Shown: positions 556 to 16,465 of the stretch, one piece after another
How the letters are laid out: the number at the start of each line of letters is the position of its first letter
Position numbering within the stretch: the stretch's first letter is position 1
DNA from: a virus
Length of the DNA: 20,778 bases
Direction: 5' to 3' (one strand)
IMG/VR virus record: IMGVR_UViG_3300036846_000685
Span: 1-20,778 of that record
The notes under the pieces: model-generated
What the model was told of the DNA's origin: nothing
The model's database searches: none
What the model saw: only the letters and a program-made list of their open reading frames with translations
Position numbers and translations under genes: made by a program

Positions 556-717
556 CTATGCGCGCGTGTGGTGGGATTTAGAAACGTCGGCTGACAGGCA
601 GGATTCTAGACGCTCGATGGTTTGGTTAACGCGGGCGTGAATGTGGACAGCGTCAAGCCCGTTATCCAGCGCGCTATTGACGATTGCGAAAATGCGGTTG
701 ATTTGTTCGGTTGTCAT
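556..717 (-). CDS. Small hypothetical protein, 53 aa, coupled to the GP88-like gene
   Basis: The start ATG overlaps the stop of the upstream GP88-like gene as TAATG, a common translational-coupling arrangement. GGGGTG about 10 nt upstream can act as a ribosome binding site. The protein begins MTTEQINRIFAIVNSALDNG and ends in a polar tail (KSHHTRA). It is predicted to be mostly helical with one cysteine and no membrane segment. I do not recognise the family. The coupling and the terminator 30 bp downstream indicate a real two-gene operon, and the partner suggests a minor phage accessory function. It is too short for most gene finders. Confidence 0.62.
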   Translation of the reverse strand: MTTEQINRIFAIVNSALDNGLDAVHIHARVNQTIERLESCLSADVSKSHHTRA

Positions 718-1412
718 TAGGCCGTCACCCCAATCTGAATGAAACCACCCGCCGTCATCGTTCGCGCTGTACCCTTGGCCTTCAATCCCACAATGACGCC
801 CGCAGCGTCGCGAAACCGTAGGTCGGATAAATCCCCGTCAATCACGGGGAAACCGCGCCACGTAGCAGGCAGCGCGCCAGAAAACACAACAGCCACGTTG
901 ATACCGTGAAGCAGCGCTTCGGCGGCGTCGGTAAAATTGTCACCTGAGAATGAAAACGTCAGATGGTAATTTGCCGCGGTACGCTTCCACGGCGCCGGAA
1001 TTTTCGTATAGTCGTAAAATTGCACGTTCGGGAACATTGAAGCGAGCTCAAGCGCCAATTGGGGTAGGTCGGATGTCCCATTAATTCGGACAGCGGGCGT
1101 CATATCGCGACGCTTAGCCTCAGCAATTAGCTTGTGAATGTCGCGTACCAGCGTAGCTTTGAACGCGTCGCGATTATTCAGGTATTCCAGCGTCTTCGCG
1201 ATACGAGCTCGCTTGATTGAAGGGAATACGCCTGCCATCCCAGCGCCGTAAAGACAAGCTTCCCTACATTCGGGCGTCGACATGGTGCACAGGTTATGTA
1301 TTCCGTCTGCTTCCATTGCAGGCGCCAAGTAAAGAATCCCGCTCAGAACAAAATATTTGCTGCCCTTAGATGTTTTCGCGTCTTGTTCGACGCTCAGTAA
1401 TTTGTATGCCAT
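717..1412 (-). CDS. Phage GP88-like protein (family of unknown function)
   Basis: A 231-aa protein. Near its N-terminus is a cysteine cluster, C42-x6-C49-x3-C53, in the context NLCTMSTPECREACLYGAG, followed by a basic stretch (KRARIAKTLEYLNN). This resembles the mycobacteriophage gene product 88 family, with a C-x(n)-C-x3-C motif and a C-terminal GVIVGLKAKG segment. The biochemical role of that family is unknown. The cysteines suggest metal or cluster binding, which is an inference. It is transcribed away from the structural genes, followed by a TAATG-coupled 53-aa gene and a terminator. No convincing Shine-Dalgarno is seen before its ATG. Assignment is by recognising the motif, not by alignment. 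Confidence 0.72.
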   Translation of the reverse strand: MAYKLLSVEQDAKTSKGSKYFVLSGILYLAPAMEADGIHNLCTMSTPECREACLYGAGMAGVFPSIKRARIAKTLEYLNNRDAFKATLVRDIHKLIAEAKRRDMTPAVRINGTSDLPQLALELASMFPNVQFYDYTKIPAPWKRTAANYHLTFSFSGDNFTDAAEALLHGINVAVVFSGALPATWRGFPVIDGDLSDLRFRDAAGVIVGLKAKGTARTMTAGGFIQIGVTA

Positions 1413-2858: not shown

Positions 2859-3395
2859 ATGGCGTTGGTCGGCGAAGTAGAACTGGCGCGCGTGCTGAAG
2901 CGCGATCGCATGGCGATCCGCAAGGCCGTGACGGCTGGCCGCATCACGCAGCGGCCTGACGGATTGTTCGAACTCGACGCCGCAATTGCGGAGTTCAACG
3001 CCAACACAAACCACGCGAAAGGCCACAACAACCGCTCCGGTTTAGCCGCTTCGCCAAAGCCGGAACCCGCCGATGCGCCGCCCGAGATTCCCGCCGATCT
3101 GCCGGCAATGACGAAGCAGTCGACCTACGCAACGGCGCGGGCGAATCGCGAATGGTACGACGCCAAGCTCAAGCGTTTGCGCTATGAGGAACGCGCGCAC
3201 AGTCTGACGCCGACCGCGGATGTGGAAGCTGCGCGCTTCACTGAATTCCGAACTCTGCGCGAGGCGTGCTTTCAGATTCCCTCTCGCGTGGCGGCATTGC
3301 TGGCTGGGGAATCGGATGTGGCGCGCTGCCAGCAATTGCTCGACGCCGAACTCACCAAAGTCTTTGAAGCATTCGCCGACGGGACAGCCGCATGA
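2859..3395 (+). CDS. terS: Terminase small subunit (Nu1-like)
   Basis: A 178-aa DNA-recognition subunit of the packaging motor. Residues about 5-45 form a winged-helix/HTH-like segment (VELARVLKRDRMAIRKAVTA, then GRI and DGLFELDAA), the Nu1 pattern in which the protein binds the packaging site. The middle is a proline-rich linker. The C-terminal half has the helical YATARANREWYDAKLKRLRY segment and a four-helix end typical of GpA partners. The stop overlaps the start of the large subunit (ATGA). The chosen ATG has no Shine-Dalgarno but lies 11 nt after the promoter -10 box. An upstream ATG at 2846 is out of frame. Confidence 0.85.
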   Translation: MALVGEVELARVLKRDRMAIRKAVTAGRITQRPDGLFELDAAIAEFNANTNHAKGHNNRSGLAASPKPEPADAPPEIPADLPAMTKQSTYATARANREWYDAKLKRLRYEERAHSLTPTADVEAARFTEFRTLREACFQIPSRVAALLAGESDVARCQQLLDAELTKVFEAFADGTAA

Positions 3396-6300
3396 TGTCG
3401 ACAACCACGCTGCACCAATCACTGCCCGGTTTGGCCGATGCCTTCGACATCACGCGCCGCGCGGCGCGTGCCGGCGCGCGTCCAGATCCCAAAATTCGGA
3501 TCAGCGATTGGGCCGACCAATACCGCGTCTTGACGACCCGTTCATCGCCCGAGCCAGGGATCTGGCGCACCAGCCGCACGCCTTTCCTGAAAGACATCAT
3601 GGATTCGCTGATGGCCGATTCGAAATGGGAACGCGTCGTGTTTATGAAAGGTTCGCAAGTCGGCGCGCCGCTTGCGCTCGACACGCCTGTGCCGACAGTC
3701 AACGGCTGGACGACGATGGCAGATATCCGAATCGGCGATCAGGTGTTTGATGAGAACGGAGCGCCATGCTGGGTATGGGGCGCTTCGCCGGTATTTGAAC
3801 AGCGGGACTGTTATCGCGTGCAATTCTCAGACGGCTGTTCGATTGTGGCGGATAGTTCTCATCTCTGGAGCGTTTGGGATGATCTCGGCGGCAGCACGAG
3901 ACGGCATCGCCGGATTCTCACTACGGCGGATATGCTGCCGCAGCACAAGAGGCGCGAACGCAACCGCTATGCCATCGATGTAACTGGCCCGCTTACGTTA
4001 CCAAGCGCCGATTTACCAATCGACCCATATTTGTTGGGCTATTGGCTCGGCAATGGTTCAGCTTGCATGAACCATCTCACTCTGCATGAAGATGATGGCG
4101 AAGAGATCGCTGGGTTGCTACGAGAGTCGGGCCGCGGGATCGCGCTGCGCCACCCAGATTGGCTCAAAGGTAAGGCGGCAAATATTCTCATCGATGGGCG
4201 CGACACGCTGGTCGAGGAACGCGAAGAGGAGCAGGAGCCATTTGGTATTGCAATTCGCTCATTGAACCTTTTCCGAAACAAGCACATTCCAGTCGCTTAT
4301 TTACGGGCATCGATGTCGCAACGGTTGGCGTTGCTGCAAGGCTTGATGGACTCTGACGGCCACGTCGGCAAAAACGGGCGCTGTGAATACTCGACCATCA
4401 CGCCCGAATTGAGGGACGGCTGTTACGAGCTTTTGGTCAGCCTCGGATTCAAGCCGACAGTCGCATGGCGTCCCGCGAAATCCAAGACGATAGGCGACCG
4501 CCCGGTCGAGTCAAAACCGTACTGGCGTCTGAGCTTCCTGGCCTATGCCGCGCTGCCGGTTTTTCGCTTAAGCCGAAAACGAAAGCGGTTGAAAGTTGCA
4601 GATGCCAAATGTCGAGTGTCTGAAACATGCCGCCGCCGCATCGTTGCTATCGAACCTGTCGCATCCGAACCCGTTCGCTGCATTGCGGTGACTTCGGAGT
4701 CAAATCTATTTCTCGCGGGCCGCGGGATGATTCCGACGCATAACACAGAGTCTGGAAATAATTGGATCGGCTATATCATCCATCTCGCGCCAGGGCCGAT
4801 GCTGGTTGTGCAGCCAACCGAAACGATGGCCAAGCGCAATTCGAAGCAGCGCATCGGGCCATTGATCGAAGATTGCCCGGTGCTGCGATCGCTGGTGCGA
4901 TCTCCCAGAATGCGCGATAGCGGCAACACGATTCTCGCCAAGGAATTTCTGGGCGGCATCCTGGTGCTGGCCGGCGCGAACAGCGCAAAGCAACTGCGTT
5001 CGATGGCCGTGCGCTACCTGATGCTCGACGAAGTCGACGCCTATCCGCCAAACGTCGATCGCGAAGGTGAACCGTGTGATCTCGCGATCGCGCGCACCTC
5101 GAATTTCCGGCAGCGCAAAATCTTCATCGCGTCGACGCCGACGATCGCTGGCCGCAGCCGCATCGAGCAGTTTTTCGCGTCGAGCGACCAGTGCTACTTT
5201 TTTGTGCCGTGCCCGCGCTGCGGAAAGTTCATCACGTTCCTGCCGGAACAGTTGGGCTGGTCGAACACGCATCCGCACGAGGCTGCATATCGTTGCCAGG
5301 AATGCGAACGCGAGATCTTCGATCACGAGAAGACCAAGATGCTCGATCTTGGCGAATGGCATTCGACGGCGCAAGGCGACGGCATCACGCGCGGCTATCA
5401 CCTGTCGAGCTATTACTCGCCGGTAGGCTGGCTGAGTTGGACGCAGATCATGCGCAAGCGCGACGTCGCGCTCACTTCGCCGGAGAAGCTGCAGACGTTC
5501 TACAACACGATTCTCGGCGTGCCGTGGGCTGACCAGGGCGAAGTTCCAGACGTCGATCGCTTGTATGAACGCCGTGAGAATTACGTGATCGGCGAGGTCC
5601 CCGAGGGCGGTTTGATTCTGACTGCCGGCGCCGACGTGCAGCGCGATCGCATCGAATGCGAGATCGTCGCCTGGGGCCGCGATCGCCATTCCTGGTCGAT
5701 CGATTACCGCGTGTACGAAGGCAACACCAACCAGCCCGAGGTGTGGATGAAACTGGCTGCGCTGCTCGATGAGGATTTCCCGAGTTATTACGGCGCCGCG
5801 CTGCGCATCAAGAAGTTGGCTGTTGACTCAGGCTTCAACACGCTGCGCGTTTATCAATGGGCGCGCCAGATGGGCTCGATGCACGTAATGGCGGTCAAGG
5901 GTGAGAACCATACGCATGTCTCGGCCTTTGTGGGCGCGCCCACGCTGGTGGACGTGACGCCGGGTGGCCGTATGATCCGCGGTGGCGTCAGGCTCTGGCC
6001 GGTGAATACTTCGGTCGGCAAAGAGGAACTCTATCGATCTCTTCGTTTGAGCGCGCCCGACCTAGCCGCCGGCGAATCGTGGCCTGCCGGCTATTGTCAC
6101 TTCCCGAACTACGGCAAGGAATTTTTCGAGCAGCTATGCGCCGAGCAGTTGATCACGCACACGATTGCAGGGCGCACGACCACGCGCTGGGAAAAGCGCC
6201 GCGACCGCAACGAAGCCTTGGACATTCGCGTTTACGCGCGGGCTGCTGCCGCGGTGCTGCGCATCGAAACGTGGCCGGCGCGCAAGTGGGATGACATCGA

Positions 6301-6421
6301 GGCCTCGCTGCGCGAATCCGCCGGCATGCAACGCGCGCCGACCGCCGCGGCGCTCAACAGGCCGCGGACGCCGATGCCGCAATTTCGACCGATGAAAGCC
6401 AACGAGAGTTTTCTGGAGTGA
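3392..6421 (+). CDS. terL: Terminase large subunit, GpA family, interrupted by an intein
   Basis: A 1009-aa precursor. Removing the 359-residue intein (residues 93-451) leaves about 650 aa, the usual GpA size (lambda gpA has 641). The protein is the ATP-driven DNA translocase and the nuclease that cuts concatemers at packaging. The spliced P-loop would read KGSQVGATESGNN. Walker B is LMLDEVD (D546, E547). A zinc ribbon follows at C607-PR-C610 and C635-QE-C638. The nuclease domain starts around TAGADVQRDRIE (D748) with AVDSGFNT downstream. Splicing is required for activity because the intein divides the ATP-binding loop. The gene starts within the stop of the small subunit, implying coupled translation. 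Confidence 0.95.
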   Translation: MMSTTTLHQSLPGLADAFDITRRAARAGARPDPKIRISDWADQYRVLTTRSSPEPGIWRTSRTPFLKDIMDSLMADSKWERVVFMKGSQVGAPLALDTPVPTVNGWTTMADIRIGDQVFDENGAPCWVWGASPVFEQRDCYRVQFSDGCSIVADSSHLWSVWDDLGGSTRRHRRILTTADMLPQHKRRERNRYAIDVTGPLTLPSADLPIDPYLLGYWLGNGSACMNHLTLHEDDGEEIAGLLRESGRGIALRHPDWLKGKAANILIDGRDTLVEEREEEQEPFGIAIRSLNLFRNKHIPVAYLRASMSQRLALLQGLMDSDGHVGKNGRCEYSTITPELRDGCYELLVSLGFKPTVAWRPAKSKTIGDRPVESKPYWRLSFLAYAALPVFRLSRKRKRLKVADAKCRVSETCRRRIVAIEPVASEPVRCIAVTSESNLFLAGRGMIPTHNTESGNNWIGYIIHLAPGPMLVVQPTETMAKRNSKQRIGPLIEDCPVLRSLVRSPRMRDSGNTILAKEFLGGILVLAGANSAKQLRSMAVRYLMLDEVDAYPPNVDREGEPCDLAIARTSNFRQRKIFIASTPTIAGRSRIEQFFASSDQCYFFVPCPRCGKFITFLPEQLGWSNTHPHEAAYRCQECEREIFDHEKTKMLDLGEWHSTAQGDGITRGYHLSSYYSPVGWLSWTQIMRKRDVALTSPEKLQTFYNTILGVPWADQGEVPDVDRLYERRENYVIGEVPEGGLILTAGADVQRDRIECEIVAWGRDRHSWSIDYRVYEGNTNQPEVWMKLAALLDEDFPSYYGAALRIKKLAVDSGFNTLRVYQWARQMGSMHVMAVKGENHTHVSAFVGAPTLVDVTPGGRMIRGGVRLWPVNTSVGKEELYRSLRLSAPDLAAGESWPAGYCHFPNYGKEFFEQLCAEQLITHTIAGRTTTRWEKRRDRNEALDIRVYARAAAAVLRIETWPARKWDDIEASLRESAGMQRAPTAAALNRPRTPMPQFRPMKANESFLE
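3668..4744 (+). other. Class 3-type intein with LAGLIDADG endonuclease domain
   Basis: A 359-residue in-frame protein intron between A92 and T452 of the terminase. It starts PLALDTPVPTVNGWTTM, the block A pattern with proline instead of Cys/Ser at position 1, and ends GMIPTHN with T as the first downstream extein residue. The class 3 triplet is present: Trp159 after His157 in block B (SSHLWSV), Cys430 in block F (VRCIAV) and Thr449 in block G. Class 3 inteins use the block F Cys as the initiating nucleophile. The endonuclease part has LLGYWLGNG (214-222) and LLQGLMDSDG (314-323). The first motif has N221 where a catalytic Asp is expected. Confidence 0.93.
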
Positions 6422-14054: not shown

Positions 14055-15194
14055 ATGGCAACGCTAACAATGCAGCCGCCCGCTGCGCCACCGCAGCTAC
14101 CCCAGCCGCTTAATGCGCCGCCGAAGGGGACAGCGAAGGCGCCGGCGTCCTGTCCTGCCAACATTCAGGAAACGCAGATCGCGTTCGGCTTTGCGCCGCA
14201 GGCCGACGTGCCGACCATCAACACGCTGGCCCAGATGTGGAGCTTGACCAAGGTCAACCCGGCGTTGTCGGTAGTAAACCCGGTTAACGAAACCAACGCG
14301 TTGGACATTGGCAAGATGAACGAGTTTCCGAGCCAGGTCTTCCCGTCCTACCAGGACGCGAGCGTGGCCTTGGAAAAGTACGTATCGAGCGAGTTCATGG
14401 CGTGGCTGTTCTGCTTCACGACCGGCAAGGCTACCAAGACCGCGGCGGGCACCGGCTGGACCTACGCCGCAGTGCCGAATGATCCCACGGTCAATTGCAT
14501 CAACCTGCCGTGCTTCACCTATGACGAGCTGTTGCGGCCCGAGCCGAATTCAGTAGTGGACCGCGCGCTCATCGGCTGCGTCGTGGGCGACTGGACGCTC
14601 ACCATGTCGAGCGGGCCGGGGCGCGCCAATTGCCGCGTCGCTTGCACGTTGCCGGCATCGGGGCGCGTGCAGATACCGGGTCTGACGCCGCTGCCGGCGG
14701 TGACGCAGGAACATTTTCTCAACGCCGCAGGCGCGACCATCACGATCAATGGCATTGATTACGTGCTGGCGCAATCCTTCATGAGCTTGGAATTCCGCTG
14801 GAACAACAACGTGCGCCTCGATACCGGCCTGTACCCTGGCAGCGGCACGCAGAACGGCTACGCGGTGCGCGGGCGCATGGAATACGGCATCCGCGAGATG
14901 ACGCTCAGCTTCGTCGCCCGTGCGGAAAAGGGTAGTACGGAGTACAACAACCTCATCAATGGGGTGGAAGGGCCGGCTACGTTCGGCGTCAAGGGCGCGT
15001 CTATCGACGCCAGCGATTTTCATGGGTTCACGATCACCATGCCACGGACGCGCATGCAGAGCGTGGTGAACGGGGACGACAACAACATCGTGACCGTGCA
15101 GTGCGGCGTGACGGCCTTGCAGCCGACCGATGGCGTGACGCCCATCATCACGATGTCGGCGACGACCGGGTTTGACGGCATTCTGGGGCTTTAG
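14055..15194 (+). CDS. Major tail tube protein (gpV-like position)
   Basis: A 379-aa protein with a near-perfect AAGGAGG before the ATG, consistent with high expression. It starts with a proline-rich disordered segment (about residues 1-30), then alternates strands and loops: QETQIAFGFAPQADVPTIN, the middle LSFVARAEKGSTEYNNLING region and the ending TMSATTGFDGILGL. Long-tailed phages place the tube protein immediately before the tail assembly chaperones, as here if the inserted lipoprotein gene is ignored. Length exceeds lambda gpV (246 aa), and other tube families reach this size. Fold assignment is by context and beta-rich pattern. Confidence 0.75.
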   Translation: MATLTMQPPAAPPQLPQPLNAPPKGTAKAPASCPANIQETQIAFGFAPQADVPTINTLAQMWSLTKVNPALSVVNPVNETNALDIGKMNEFPSQVFPSYQDASVALEKYVSSEFMAWLFCFTTGKATKTAAGTGWTYAAVPNDPTVNCINLPCFTYDELLRPEPNSVVDRALIGCVVGDWTLTMSSGPGRANCRVACTLPASGRVQIPGLTPLPAVTQEHFLNAAGATITINGIDYVLAQSFMSLEFRWNNNVRLDTGLYPGSGTQNGYAVRGRMEYGIREMTLSFVARAEKGSTEYNNLINGVEGPATFGVKGASIDASDFHGFTITMPRTRMQSVVNGDDNNIVTVQCGVTALQPTDGVTPIITMSATTGFDGILGL

Positions 15195-15201
15195 ATGGAA
15201 A

Positions 15202-15801
15202 TTACTCCTCCCAGGTGAACTTCACCAATGATGCTTGCTTCCTATCTTCGGAGTATTGCAGTTCGCAGCGATAGGGATGTTCCGGCCCAAGAGGCTTGAA
15301 TACTATGCCGCCTTTGATCACTGCCGTGCCATCCCGAAGGTCCCACAAACGCCGATGCCGAGGCGTGAAATACATGCCATCCTCTGGTTGCCATTCCTGT
15401 TTAATCCTGGCTTCGCAGGCATCTTCGGTAGCACGAATGAAATTGTCCCTGAGAACAATGACGAGGTTATCGAGAGCGTCGTCGGCGTGCAAATCCTCGC
15501 CGCGGATTGTGAATCGAGTGAGTTGGAGATCGCGGGCTGCGCCAACCGGCAGCGAATTTTCGTCGTCAGAACGCACCGGATCTACGGGCAAACACGAACG
15601 ATTAGGGCTATTCGACAATATCCCAGGTACATCGTCTACGGGAATGCACCGCGGTTTTGATTGGCTGGCATTGGCCCTCGATTGCGAAGCAGTCTCCGTG
15701 ACGCGAGTTTTATCTTCAGGGGCGCCGGTAACCATCTGGCAGGAGCACATCCCACATCCCAGTAAAACTATGAAAACAAGCGAACTCAAGCAACCTTTCA
15801 A
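15202..15801 (-). CDS. Opposite-strand secreted lipoprotein (putative moron)
   Basis: A 199-aa protein encoded against the direction of the tail operon. It starts at TTG with AGGAG 7 nt upstream. The N-terminus MKGCLSSLVFIVLLGCGMCS has a short positive start, a hydrophobic core and a lipobox LLGC (Cys16 lipidated), so the mature protein should be membrane-anchored outside the cytoplasm. The rest is polar with several cysteines (near 52, 70, 128 and 178) that could form disulfides. No known domain is recognised. GC is about 40-50% in sampled lines against about 60% in neighbours. Its stop lies 7 nt from the tail tube stop. Phage lipoproteins of this layout often block superinfection or alter the host surface, but that is inference. 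Confidence 0.8.
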   Translation of the reverse strand: MKGCLSSLVFIVLLGCGMCSCQMVTGAPEDKTRVTETASQSRANASQSKPRCIPVDDVPGILSNSPNRSCLPVDPVRSDDENSLPVGAARDLQLTRFTIRGEDLHADDALDNLVIVLRDNFIRATEDACEARIKQEWQPEDGMYFTPRHRRLWDLRDGTAVIKGGIVFKPLGPEHPYRCELQYSEDRKQASLVKFTWEE

Positions 15802-15821
15802 CGTAGATCTCCTATGTCGCT

Positions 15822-15852
15822 ATTTTAACGATTCATCCATAAACTCTGACAG
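15822..15852 (-). promoter_or_regulatory. Predicted promoter of the lipoprotein gene
   Basis: On the minus strand TAAAAT (15827-15822; 5 of 6) is the -10 candidate. Possible -35 elements are GTCAGA (spacer 17) or CTGTCA (spacer 19), both weak. The region is AT-rich, and the -10 lies 20 nt before the TTG start. It points to expression independent of the late operon, for example from a prophage. Confidence 0.48.
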
Positions 15853-15868
15853 ATCAATGGGATAAACC

Positions 15869-16465
15869 ATGTTTGACACCAACACCACGATCACCATCGG
15901 GCTACGCACGACGCATGGCAAAGCCGATATCACCGTGCGCTGGCCGACCGACGAAGAATGGGCGGCGCACCGCAAGCGGCGCCGCATCATGCAGAAAACA
16001 TTGGGCCGCGGCGCCACCGAGACGGAGATCGATACCACTGAGGCCGACGCCAAGCTGTATGACGCGATCAAGCAGAACGGCGCGCCGCCGCTTTCGGTAG
16101 GCGAGGCCAATCGCGTCATCGATACGATCTCCACCTGCGATGTGCTGGGCGTGGACCTGCACGCCGAAGACGCCGAGGTCGAACTGAACACCGTGATGTG
16201 CTCTGTGAAGCACACCGTCAGGATTCCGAATATGGATGAGGTGCGGACGCTGCAACGCTCGACGCGGCTGATCACGTTGCCTTACAACCGGGCGGAGATC
16301 CGCACCAATCTGGAGTCGAGCGCCGGCCTATGGGACAAGTGCGGCGGGCGCGCCGAGGGCTATGCAGGCGCCGTTCCGAATCTGCACAAGGACGTAGCGA
16401 TCCGCGCCGTGATTTCGGCGATCGAGCAAGAGGCGATGCCGAGCAATGCCGAAGGAAATTTTTAG
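15869..16465 (+). CDS. Tail assembly chaperone G
   Basis: A 198-aa protein lying just before the tape measure region. It has an alpha-helical acidic/basic character (WPTDEEWAAHRKRRRIMQKT near the N-terminus) and ends GNF at a slippery sequence. G-type chaperones coat the tape measure protein and recruit tube subunits during tail assembly, and they are not found in the virion. The identification is supported by the frameshift site at its stop codon and by position. The ribosome binding site is weak (GGGA). Transcription must pass through the opposing lipoprotein gene. Confidence 0.82.
   Translation: MFDTNTTITIGLRTTHGKADITVRWPTDEEWAAHRKRRRIMQKTLGRGATETEIDTTEADAKLYDAIKQNGAPPLSVGEANRVIDTISTCDVLGVDLHAEDAEVELNTVMCSVKHTVRIPNMDEVRTLQRSTRLITLPYNRAEIRTNLESSAGLWDKCGGRAEGYAGAVPNLHKDVAIRAVISAIEQEAMPSNAEGNF

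What the first reader, a model, noticed from the sequence alone, without database searches (positions are those of the whole stretch)
15202..15868. Antisense, low-GC lipoprotein gene inserted in the tail operon
A signal-peptide lipoprotein with its own promoter-like sequence and a TTG start with good ribosome binding site is wedged, in reverse, between the tail tube gene and G, with lower GC than its neighbours. This is the classical position and make-up of a moron. Expression from a prophage could block superinfection or modify the host envelope. I recognise no known family, so it may be a novel exclusion factor.
Basis: partly seen in the sequence, partly recalled or inferred. Interest (0 to 1): 0.68.

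Follow-up and report, generated by a model that had tools for sequence, protein, structure and literature searches.

The report
Swappable antisense membrane-protein gene in prophage
In a group of uncultured temperate phages, the gap between two tail genes either is empty or holds a backwards-facing gene with its own promoter for an exported, membrane-anchored protein whose outer part has been swapped many times, probably a gene that the dormant phage uses to alter or defend its bacterial host.

Summary
In detail: a 199-codon TTG-started ORF (15202-15801, minus) with a good Shine-Dalgarno and an N-terminal export/anchor segment lies in a 674-bp, 51% GC insert between the tail-tube gene and G (neighbours 60-64% GC). 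Relatives in IMG/VR show that this is a moron site. In the window's tail-tube clade (24 distinct tubes) 12 have no insert (0-17 bp gap) and 12 have one, interleaved on the tree. Every insert faces backwards and encodes a protein with an N-terminal hydrophobic segment, but the cargo differs. The 5' module (promoter-like block, start, first codons) is shared between inserts whose downstream parts are unrelated; L011 is a visible chimera with the window's 5' module and another insert's ectodomain. 14 of 15 near-complete relatives carry an integrase, so the clade is temperate. The window's ectodomain matched nothing I could search. The lipoprotein call is only permissive: the homologous segment in L011 is a transmembrane anchor without a lipobox cysteine. 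Best reading: lysogen-expressed envelope moron, with superinfection exclusion the most likely single function, untested. The locus is a new variant of a known kind, with constant promoter/anchor modules and exchangeable ectodomains.

The parts
15195..15868 (.). Whole insert between tail-tube stop and G start (674 bp, 51% GC); absent (0-17 bp gap) in half of the close relatives
15202..15801 (-). Antisense CDS, TTG start, 199 aa; residues 1-37 match the anchor of the family found in other inserts, residues 46-199 orphan ectodomain
15730..15792 (-). N-terminal hydrophobic segment (residues 4-24), signal peptide or membrane anchor; helix 4-24 in the AlphaFold2 model (pLDDT about 83-89 in its first 20 residues)
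15739..15756 (-). Two candidate lipobox cysteines, Cys16 (LLG|C) and Cys21 (MCS|C), fitting PS00013 only
15808..15813 (-). Shine-Dalgarno AGGAGA, 6 nt before TTG; SD and TTG both conserved in L011
15815..15868 (-). Conserved 5' promoter-like block (nhmmer E 1.3e-7), shared with inserts of other cargo
15822..15827 (-). -10-like hexamer TAAAAT, aligned with TACAAT/TATAAT/TAAAAT of most other inserts
15859..15865 (+). GGGATAA, probable ribosome binding site that the insert's end supplies to G (inference)
14055..15194 (+). Tail-tube gene (PF18906), left neighbour
15869..16465 (+). Tail assembly chaperone G, right neighbour
16456..16462 (+). A_AAT_TTT slippery heptamer for G-T frameshift

Best explanation
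The insert is a moron of a temperate phage: a self-contained antisense gene with its own promoter that the prophage can express while the late tail operon is silent. Its product is inserted into the cell envelope by an N-terminal anchor (signal anchor or lipid anchor) and exposes a roughly 150-residue ectodomain outside the cytoplasm. The locus evolves by cassette exchange: 5' modules (promoter-like block, start, anchor) are kept while the ectodomain behind them is replaced, and the whole gene is gained and lost at the tube/G junction. Shown: antisense exported gene, patchy presence, shared 5' modules with unrelated cargo, integrases in the clade. Inferred: expression in the lysogen and envelope location. 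Most likely single function (about 0.4): superinfection exclusion, the ectodomain interfering with DNA entry of phages with long tails, as HK97 gp15 or TP-J34 Ltp do. The confidence given is for the moron; it covers both exclusion and other envelope functions.
For: 36, then 80, IMG/VR relatives found by the tail tube; gap either empty or filled; tree of 67 tubes: 12 filled and 12 empty in the window's clade, 7 changes needed (bootstrap 6-8). All 12 complete inserts are antisense and start with a hydrophobic segment, against 9 of 140 background ORFs. 5' module shared with different cargo: window/L011 74% over 133 bp, L018/L036 89% over 73 bp, L040/L006 81% over 73 bp; L011/L006 85% over the last 317 bp only. 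Promoter block hits only insert 5' ends among all loci held when it was run, and exact-match scans of IMG/VR find it only in this clade. Purifying selection on the antisense frame in the L011/L006 pair (28 synonymous, 10 non-synonymous codons). Integrases in 14 of 15 near-complete relatives. Precedent: an antisense, self-promoted gene in the late genes of a Salmonella prophage, transcribed in lysogens (PMC7067206).
Against: No expression data. Codon usage of the window ORF resembles the phage's late genes in no frame, and a plus-strand shadow frame of 196 codons also exists. No sigma-70 -35 box. No relative in the GTDB representative genomes by tube or capsid (few patterns used), so no prophage was seen directly. 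Temperate life of the window's own phage is inferred from relatives, as the 20.8-kb contig is a fragment. No similarity to any known exclusion or defence protein.
Confidence: 0.75

Rival explanations
1. Moron for host fitness rather than exclusion: the exported protein alters the envelope or handles stress, grazing or another host trait, with no effect on phages. (A rival to the exclusion step only, not to the moron.)
For: All cargoes are exported, with several unrelated ectodomains; the family domain is widespread in phages in many gene contexts; its fold looks like a generic cystatin/NTF2-like domain.
Against: Cargo turnover at a tail locus of long-tailed temperate phages fits antagonism between phages at least as well; no host-function homologue was found.
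Confidence: 0.33
2. The antisense RNA is the agent: a transcript from the conserved promoter runs against the tail-tube mRNA, keeping late genes silent in the lysogen or blocking tail genes of a superinfecting phage.
For: Orientation is antisense in 12 of 12; no terminator was found at the gene's 3' end, so the transcript could run into the tube gene; an antisense RNA in BTP1 late genes excludes superinfection (PMC7067206).
Against: The antisense reading frame is under purifying selection in sister inserts and encodes exported proteins in every insert, which an RNA-only role would not need.
Confidence: 0.12
3. A virion or tail accessory protein encoded in reverse.
For: Location among tail genes.
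Against: Absent from half of close relatives with intact neighbours; antisense to the late operon; export signals.
Confidence: 0.02
4. Spurious ORF, with the insert being non-coding filler or the plus-strand frame being the real gene.
For: The ectodomain is an orphan and a plus-strand frame is open for 196 codons; codon usage does not decide.
Against: SD and TTG start conserved in L011; antisense frame conserved as protein in sister inserts; chance of such an ORF about 1 in 2000.
Confidence: 0.06

Closest known systems
HK97 gp15 (and the lambdoid tail-region morons)
   Same: Membrane protein gene inserted in the tail module of a long-tailed temperate phage; in HK97 it follows the G/T-like genes.
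   Different: gp15 is 62 aa, on the sense strand and after the frameshifted pair; here 199 aa, antisense, before G, with a large ectodomain. No sequence match was tested beyond inspection.
HK97 gp23 ('reverse moron product')
   Same: Moron in the tail region on the strand opposite to the late genes.
   Different: Different position; no shared 5' module or family is known to me.
TP-J34 Ltp superinfection-exclusion lipoproteins
   Same: Phage-encoded surface lipoprotein proposed to be a moron (PMC3952083); acts on DNA injection, target tape measure protein.
   Different: No Ltp Pfam match; Gram-positive host; lipidation here uncertain.
PHROG 13160 / 2320 / 26910 proteins ('LKxPxTAxF ... VDxQNxFGAxxR' domain)
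   Same: Most sister inserts at this site encode this family; the window shares their first 37 residues.
   Different: The window's ectodomain does not match the family profile better than shuffled sequence.
ST64B STMMW_20121
   Same: Self-promoted gene antisense to prophage late genes, transcribed in lysogens (PMC7067206).
   Different: Homology not tested; no cassette exchange described there as far as I read.

Membership tests
Moron (lysogen-expressed accessory gene in a temperate phage) | Present in some and absent from other close relatives, neighbours intact | tested here: met
Moron (lysogen-expressed accessory gene in a temperate phage) | Base composition differs from flanks | tested here: met
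   51% against 60-64% GC; GC3 0.56 against 0.80-0.83
Moron (lysogen-expressed accessory gene in a temperate phage) | Own promoter | tested here: inconclusive
   Conserved block with -10-like hexamer, but no sigma-70 consensus site
Moron (lysogen-expressed accessory gene in a temperate phage) | Own terminator (common in classical morons, not required of all) | tested here: inconclusive
   No terminator-like site on the minus strand in a simple consensus scan
Moron (lysogen-expressed accessory gene in a temperate phage) | Carrier phage is temperate | tested here: met
   Integrase in 14 of 15 near-complete relatives; inferred for the window's own phage
Moron (lysogen-expressed accessory gene in a temperate phage) | Expressed from the prophage | not testable with these tools
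   -
Bacterial lipoprotein | Signal peptide with lipobox cysteine | tested here: inconclusive
   Cys16 and Cys21 fit PS00013; homologous anchor in L011/L091 has none
Ltp-type exclusion lipoprotein | Lipoprotein_Ltp Pfam domain | tested here: not met
   no match to it in Pfam-A at E up to 1
PHROG 13160/2320 domain family | N-terminal anchor of the inserts' family members | tested here: met
   residues 1-37, E 4.6e-6 in one pairwise comparison
PHROG 13160/2320 domain family | Ectodomain with LKxPxTAxF and VDxQNxFGA motifs | tested here: not met
   score within the range of shuffles
Known anti-phage defence proteins (PADLOC-DB) | Match to a PADLOC model | tested here: not met
Superinfection exclusion protein | Blocks infection by other phages when expressed | not testable with these tools

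The most novel reading that the evidence does not exclude
The tube/G junction of this phage clade is a dedicated cassette site: constant 5' modules (promoter, near-leaderless start, membrane anchor) kept in place while ectodomains are exchanged behind them, giving each prophage a different envelope-displayed exclusion protein, linked to the tail genes that determine its own sensitivity.
Probability: 0.3. Interest if true: 0.65.

Novelty: new variant of a known kind. Interest (0 to 1): 0.47.

Why it matters
Morons are usually found one at a time. Here one site in uncultured temperate phages has a dozen occupants to compare, with constant and variable parts separated by natural recombination. 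[quoted passage not shown]

Tried and rejected
Family searches of the window protein in Pfam, PHROGs, NCBIfam, PADLOC, PDB sequences, phage and plasmid records and IMG/VR gave nothing credible. The idea that the window's ectodomain is a diverged member of the FGAxxR family (it has 'YRCELQY...LVKF', like the family's end) was tested with a 76-sequence profile and shuffles and not supported. AlphaFold2 of the window protein is too weak to search (pLDDT 55), so I did not run a fold search with it. For the sister family the model is good (pLDDT 85): an anchor helix and a cystatin/NTF2-like domain (best PDB Z 9.5 and 9.3 to designed proteins, 7.7 to cystatin C); Foldseek E-values in the PDB are weak, and a shared fold gives no function. 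In BFVD the best matches are uncharacterised phage proteins and one 'lipoprotein' of a Gordonia phage. Host search by tube and capsid in genome representatives failed. The SD-type promoter pattern scan returned 16 contigs outside the clade, taken as chance matches and not followed. The plus-strand ORFs across the inserts were considered as the real genes and rejected from codon substitution patterns in L011/L006.

Full report
What is there. The ORF 15202-15801 (minus, TTG, 199 aa) is real as described, with AGGAGA six bases before the start. It fills most of a 674-bp insert (15195-15868, 51.5% GC) between the tail-tube gene (PF18906) and G. G is identified by position and by an A_AAT_TTT heptamer at its end, with an open -1 frame after it. 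The window is an entire IMG/VR record of 20,778 bases, with a lambda-like order of terminase, portal, S49 protease, capsid and tail genes.

Relatives. The tail tube drew 36 and then 80 related loci from IMG/VR. In each I located the tube stop and the G start. Three states occur: no insert; an antisense insert of 416-843 bp; and, in a sister clade, a short sense ORF of about 50 codons with two hydrophobic stretches. In a maximum-likelihood tree of 67 distinct tubes, the window's clade of 24 rows has 12 antisense inserts and 12 empty sites, interleaved; the antisense state needs 7 changes (6-8 in bootstraps; strongly supported branches alone force at least 2). L004 has a further, truncated insert. 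The site is therefore gained and lost, with neighbours intact.

Cargo. All 12 complete inserts face against the tail operon and encode a protein with an N-terminal hydrophobic segment; by the same measure 9 of 140 background ORFs have one. Eight carry, or resemble, one family with LKxPxTAxF and VDxQNxFGAxxR motifs, matching PHROGs 13160 and 2320 of unknown function for seven of them. L036 and L040 share a second cargo type, L026 is a third, and the window's ectodomain a fourth. At least 369 IMG/VR contigs encode the first family, in varied contexts. Its AlphaFold2 model is a membrane helix, a linker helix and a cystatin/NTF2-like domain. One phage with an empty tube/G site (L017) carries a family member elsewhere, beyond its terminase gene (L091:12076-12519).

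Constant 5' modules. The inserts share their beginnings more than their bodies. A block of about 55 bases running from the G start codon, with TAxAAT and in most cases an ATG nine to ten bases after it, is common to nearly all. Given the usual distance from a -10 box to the transcription start, such genes would be leaderless or nearly so (inference). In L003, L006 and L013 that ATG opens a 13-codon leader whose stop overlaps the ATG of the anchor gene. In the window and L011 the leader is replaced by a Shine-Dalgarno and TTG. A profile of the block hits only insert 5' ends among the loci then held, and exact patterns find it in IMG/VR only in this clade. A sigma-70 consensus scan finds no site in the window, so the -35 side is unexplained.

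Chimeras. DNA comparison shows the joints directly. Window and L011 are 74% identical over 133 bp at the 5' end and then unrelated. L011 and L006 are 85% identical over the last 317 bp and differ before. L018 and L036 are 89% identical over the first 73 bp and carry different cargo; L040 shares its 73-bp module with L006, L013, L003, L002 and L008. By profile comparison the window protein matches the family only in residues 1-37 (E 4.6e-6), and its ectodomain scores like shuffled sequence.

Coding strand. Long frames are open on both strands of many inserts. In the L011/L006 pair the antisense frame has 28 synonymous and 10 non-synonymous changed codons; the only other frame with a similar ratio contains stops. 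For the window alone, codon usage does not decide; the case rests on the conserved start, the anchor homology and the length of the frame.

Lifestyle. Of 15 near-complete relatives (46.8-57.7 kb), 3 have a tyrosine integrase and 11 a large serine integrase. The nearest named capsid homologues (35-45% identity) are mostly in phages of Gram-negative bacteria, so a diderm host is likely, not shown.

Interpretation. A self-contained, exported, antisense gene that comes and goes in the late operon of a temperate phage is a moron. That it is an exclusion factor is the most likely specific function, because comparable membrane or surface morons of long-tailed phages act on DNA injection (HK97 gp15, Ltp; [quoted passage not shown] It remains inference; host-fitness functions are nearly as likely. 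An antisense RNA role has precedent (PMC7067206) and could coexist.

What is new. The kind is known. The variant is a single site where 5' modules are conserved and ectodomains exchanged, seen in a dozen uncultured phages. The window's own ectodomain is an orphan in everything I could search.

Noticed in passing
window 3392-6421 (+): The terminase large-subunit gene contains an intein of about 359 residues with a LAGLIDADG domain. It seems to begin with Pro ('GA|PLALDTPVPT'), ends 'PTHN|T' and has Cys in 'PVRCIAV', which resembles class 3 inteins (from memory).
   Followed up: partly
L028-L032, L043, L045-L047, L050-L056, L058-L066, L070, L071, L075, L076, L080, L083, tube/G junction: The sister clade has a conserved sense ORF of about 45-52 codons with two hydrophobic stretches at the same junction ('..FLIGTVN.Q.P..R.INW..AGLALLTL..'), possibly another membrane-protein moron or a fixed gene.
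   Followed up: partly
L091:12076-12519 (+), also L100: A family member with the window-type anchor lies beyond the terminase gene in a phage with an empty tube/G site, so the family moves between sites.
   Followed up: partly
window 16456-16462 (+): A_AAT_TTT slippery heptamer at the end of G with an open -1 frame to 16812, a G-T type frameshift.
   Followed up: partly
window 717-1412 (-): Gp88-family protein (PF17338, E 1.6e-38) on the minus strand upstream of the terminase, outside the late operon.
   Followed up: no
15 near-complete relatives (G001-G015): Closely related phages use two unrelated integrase classes: 3 tyrosine, 11 large serine, so the integration module has been exchanged.
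   Followed up: partly
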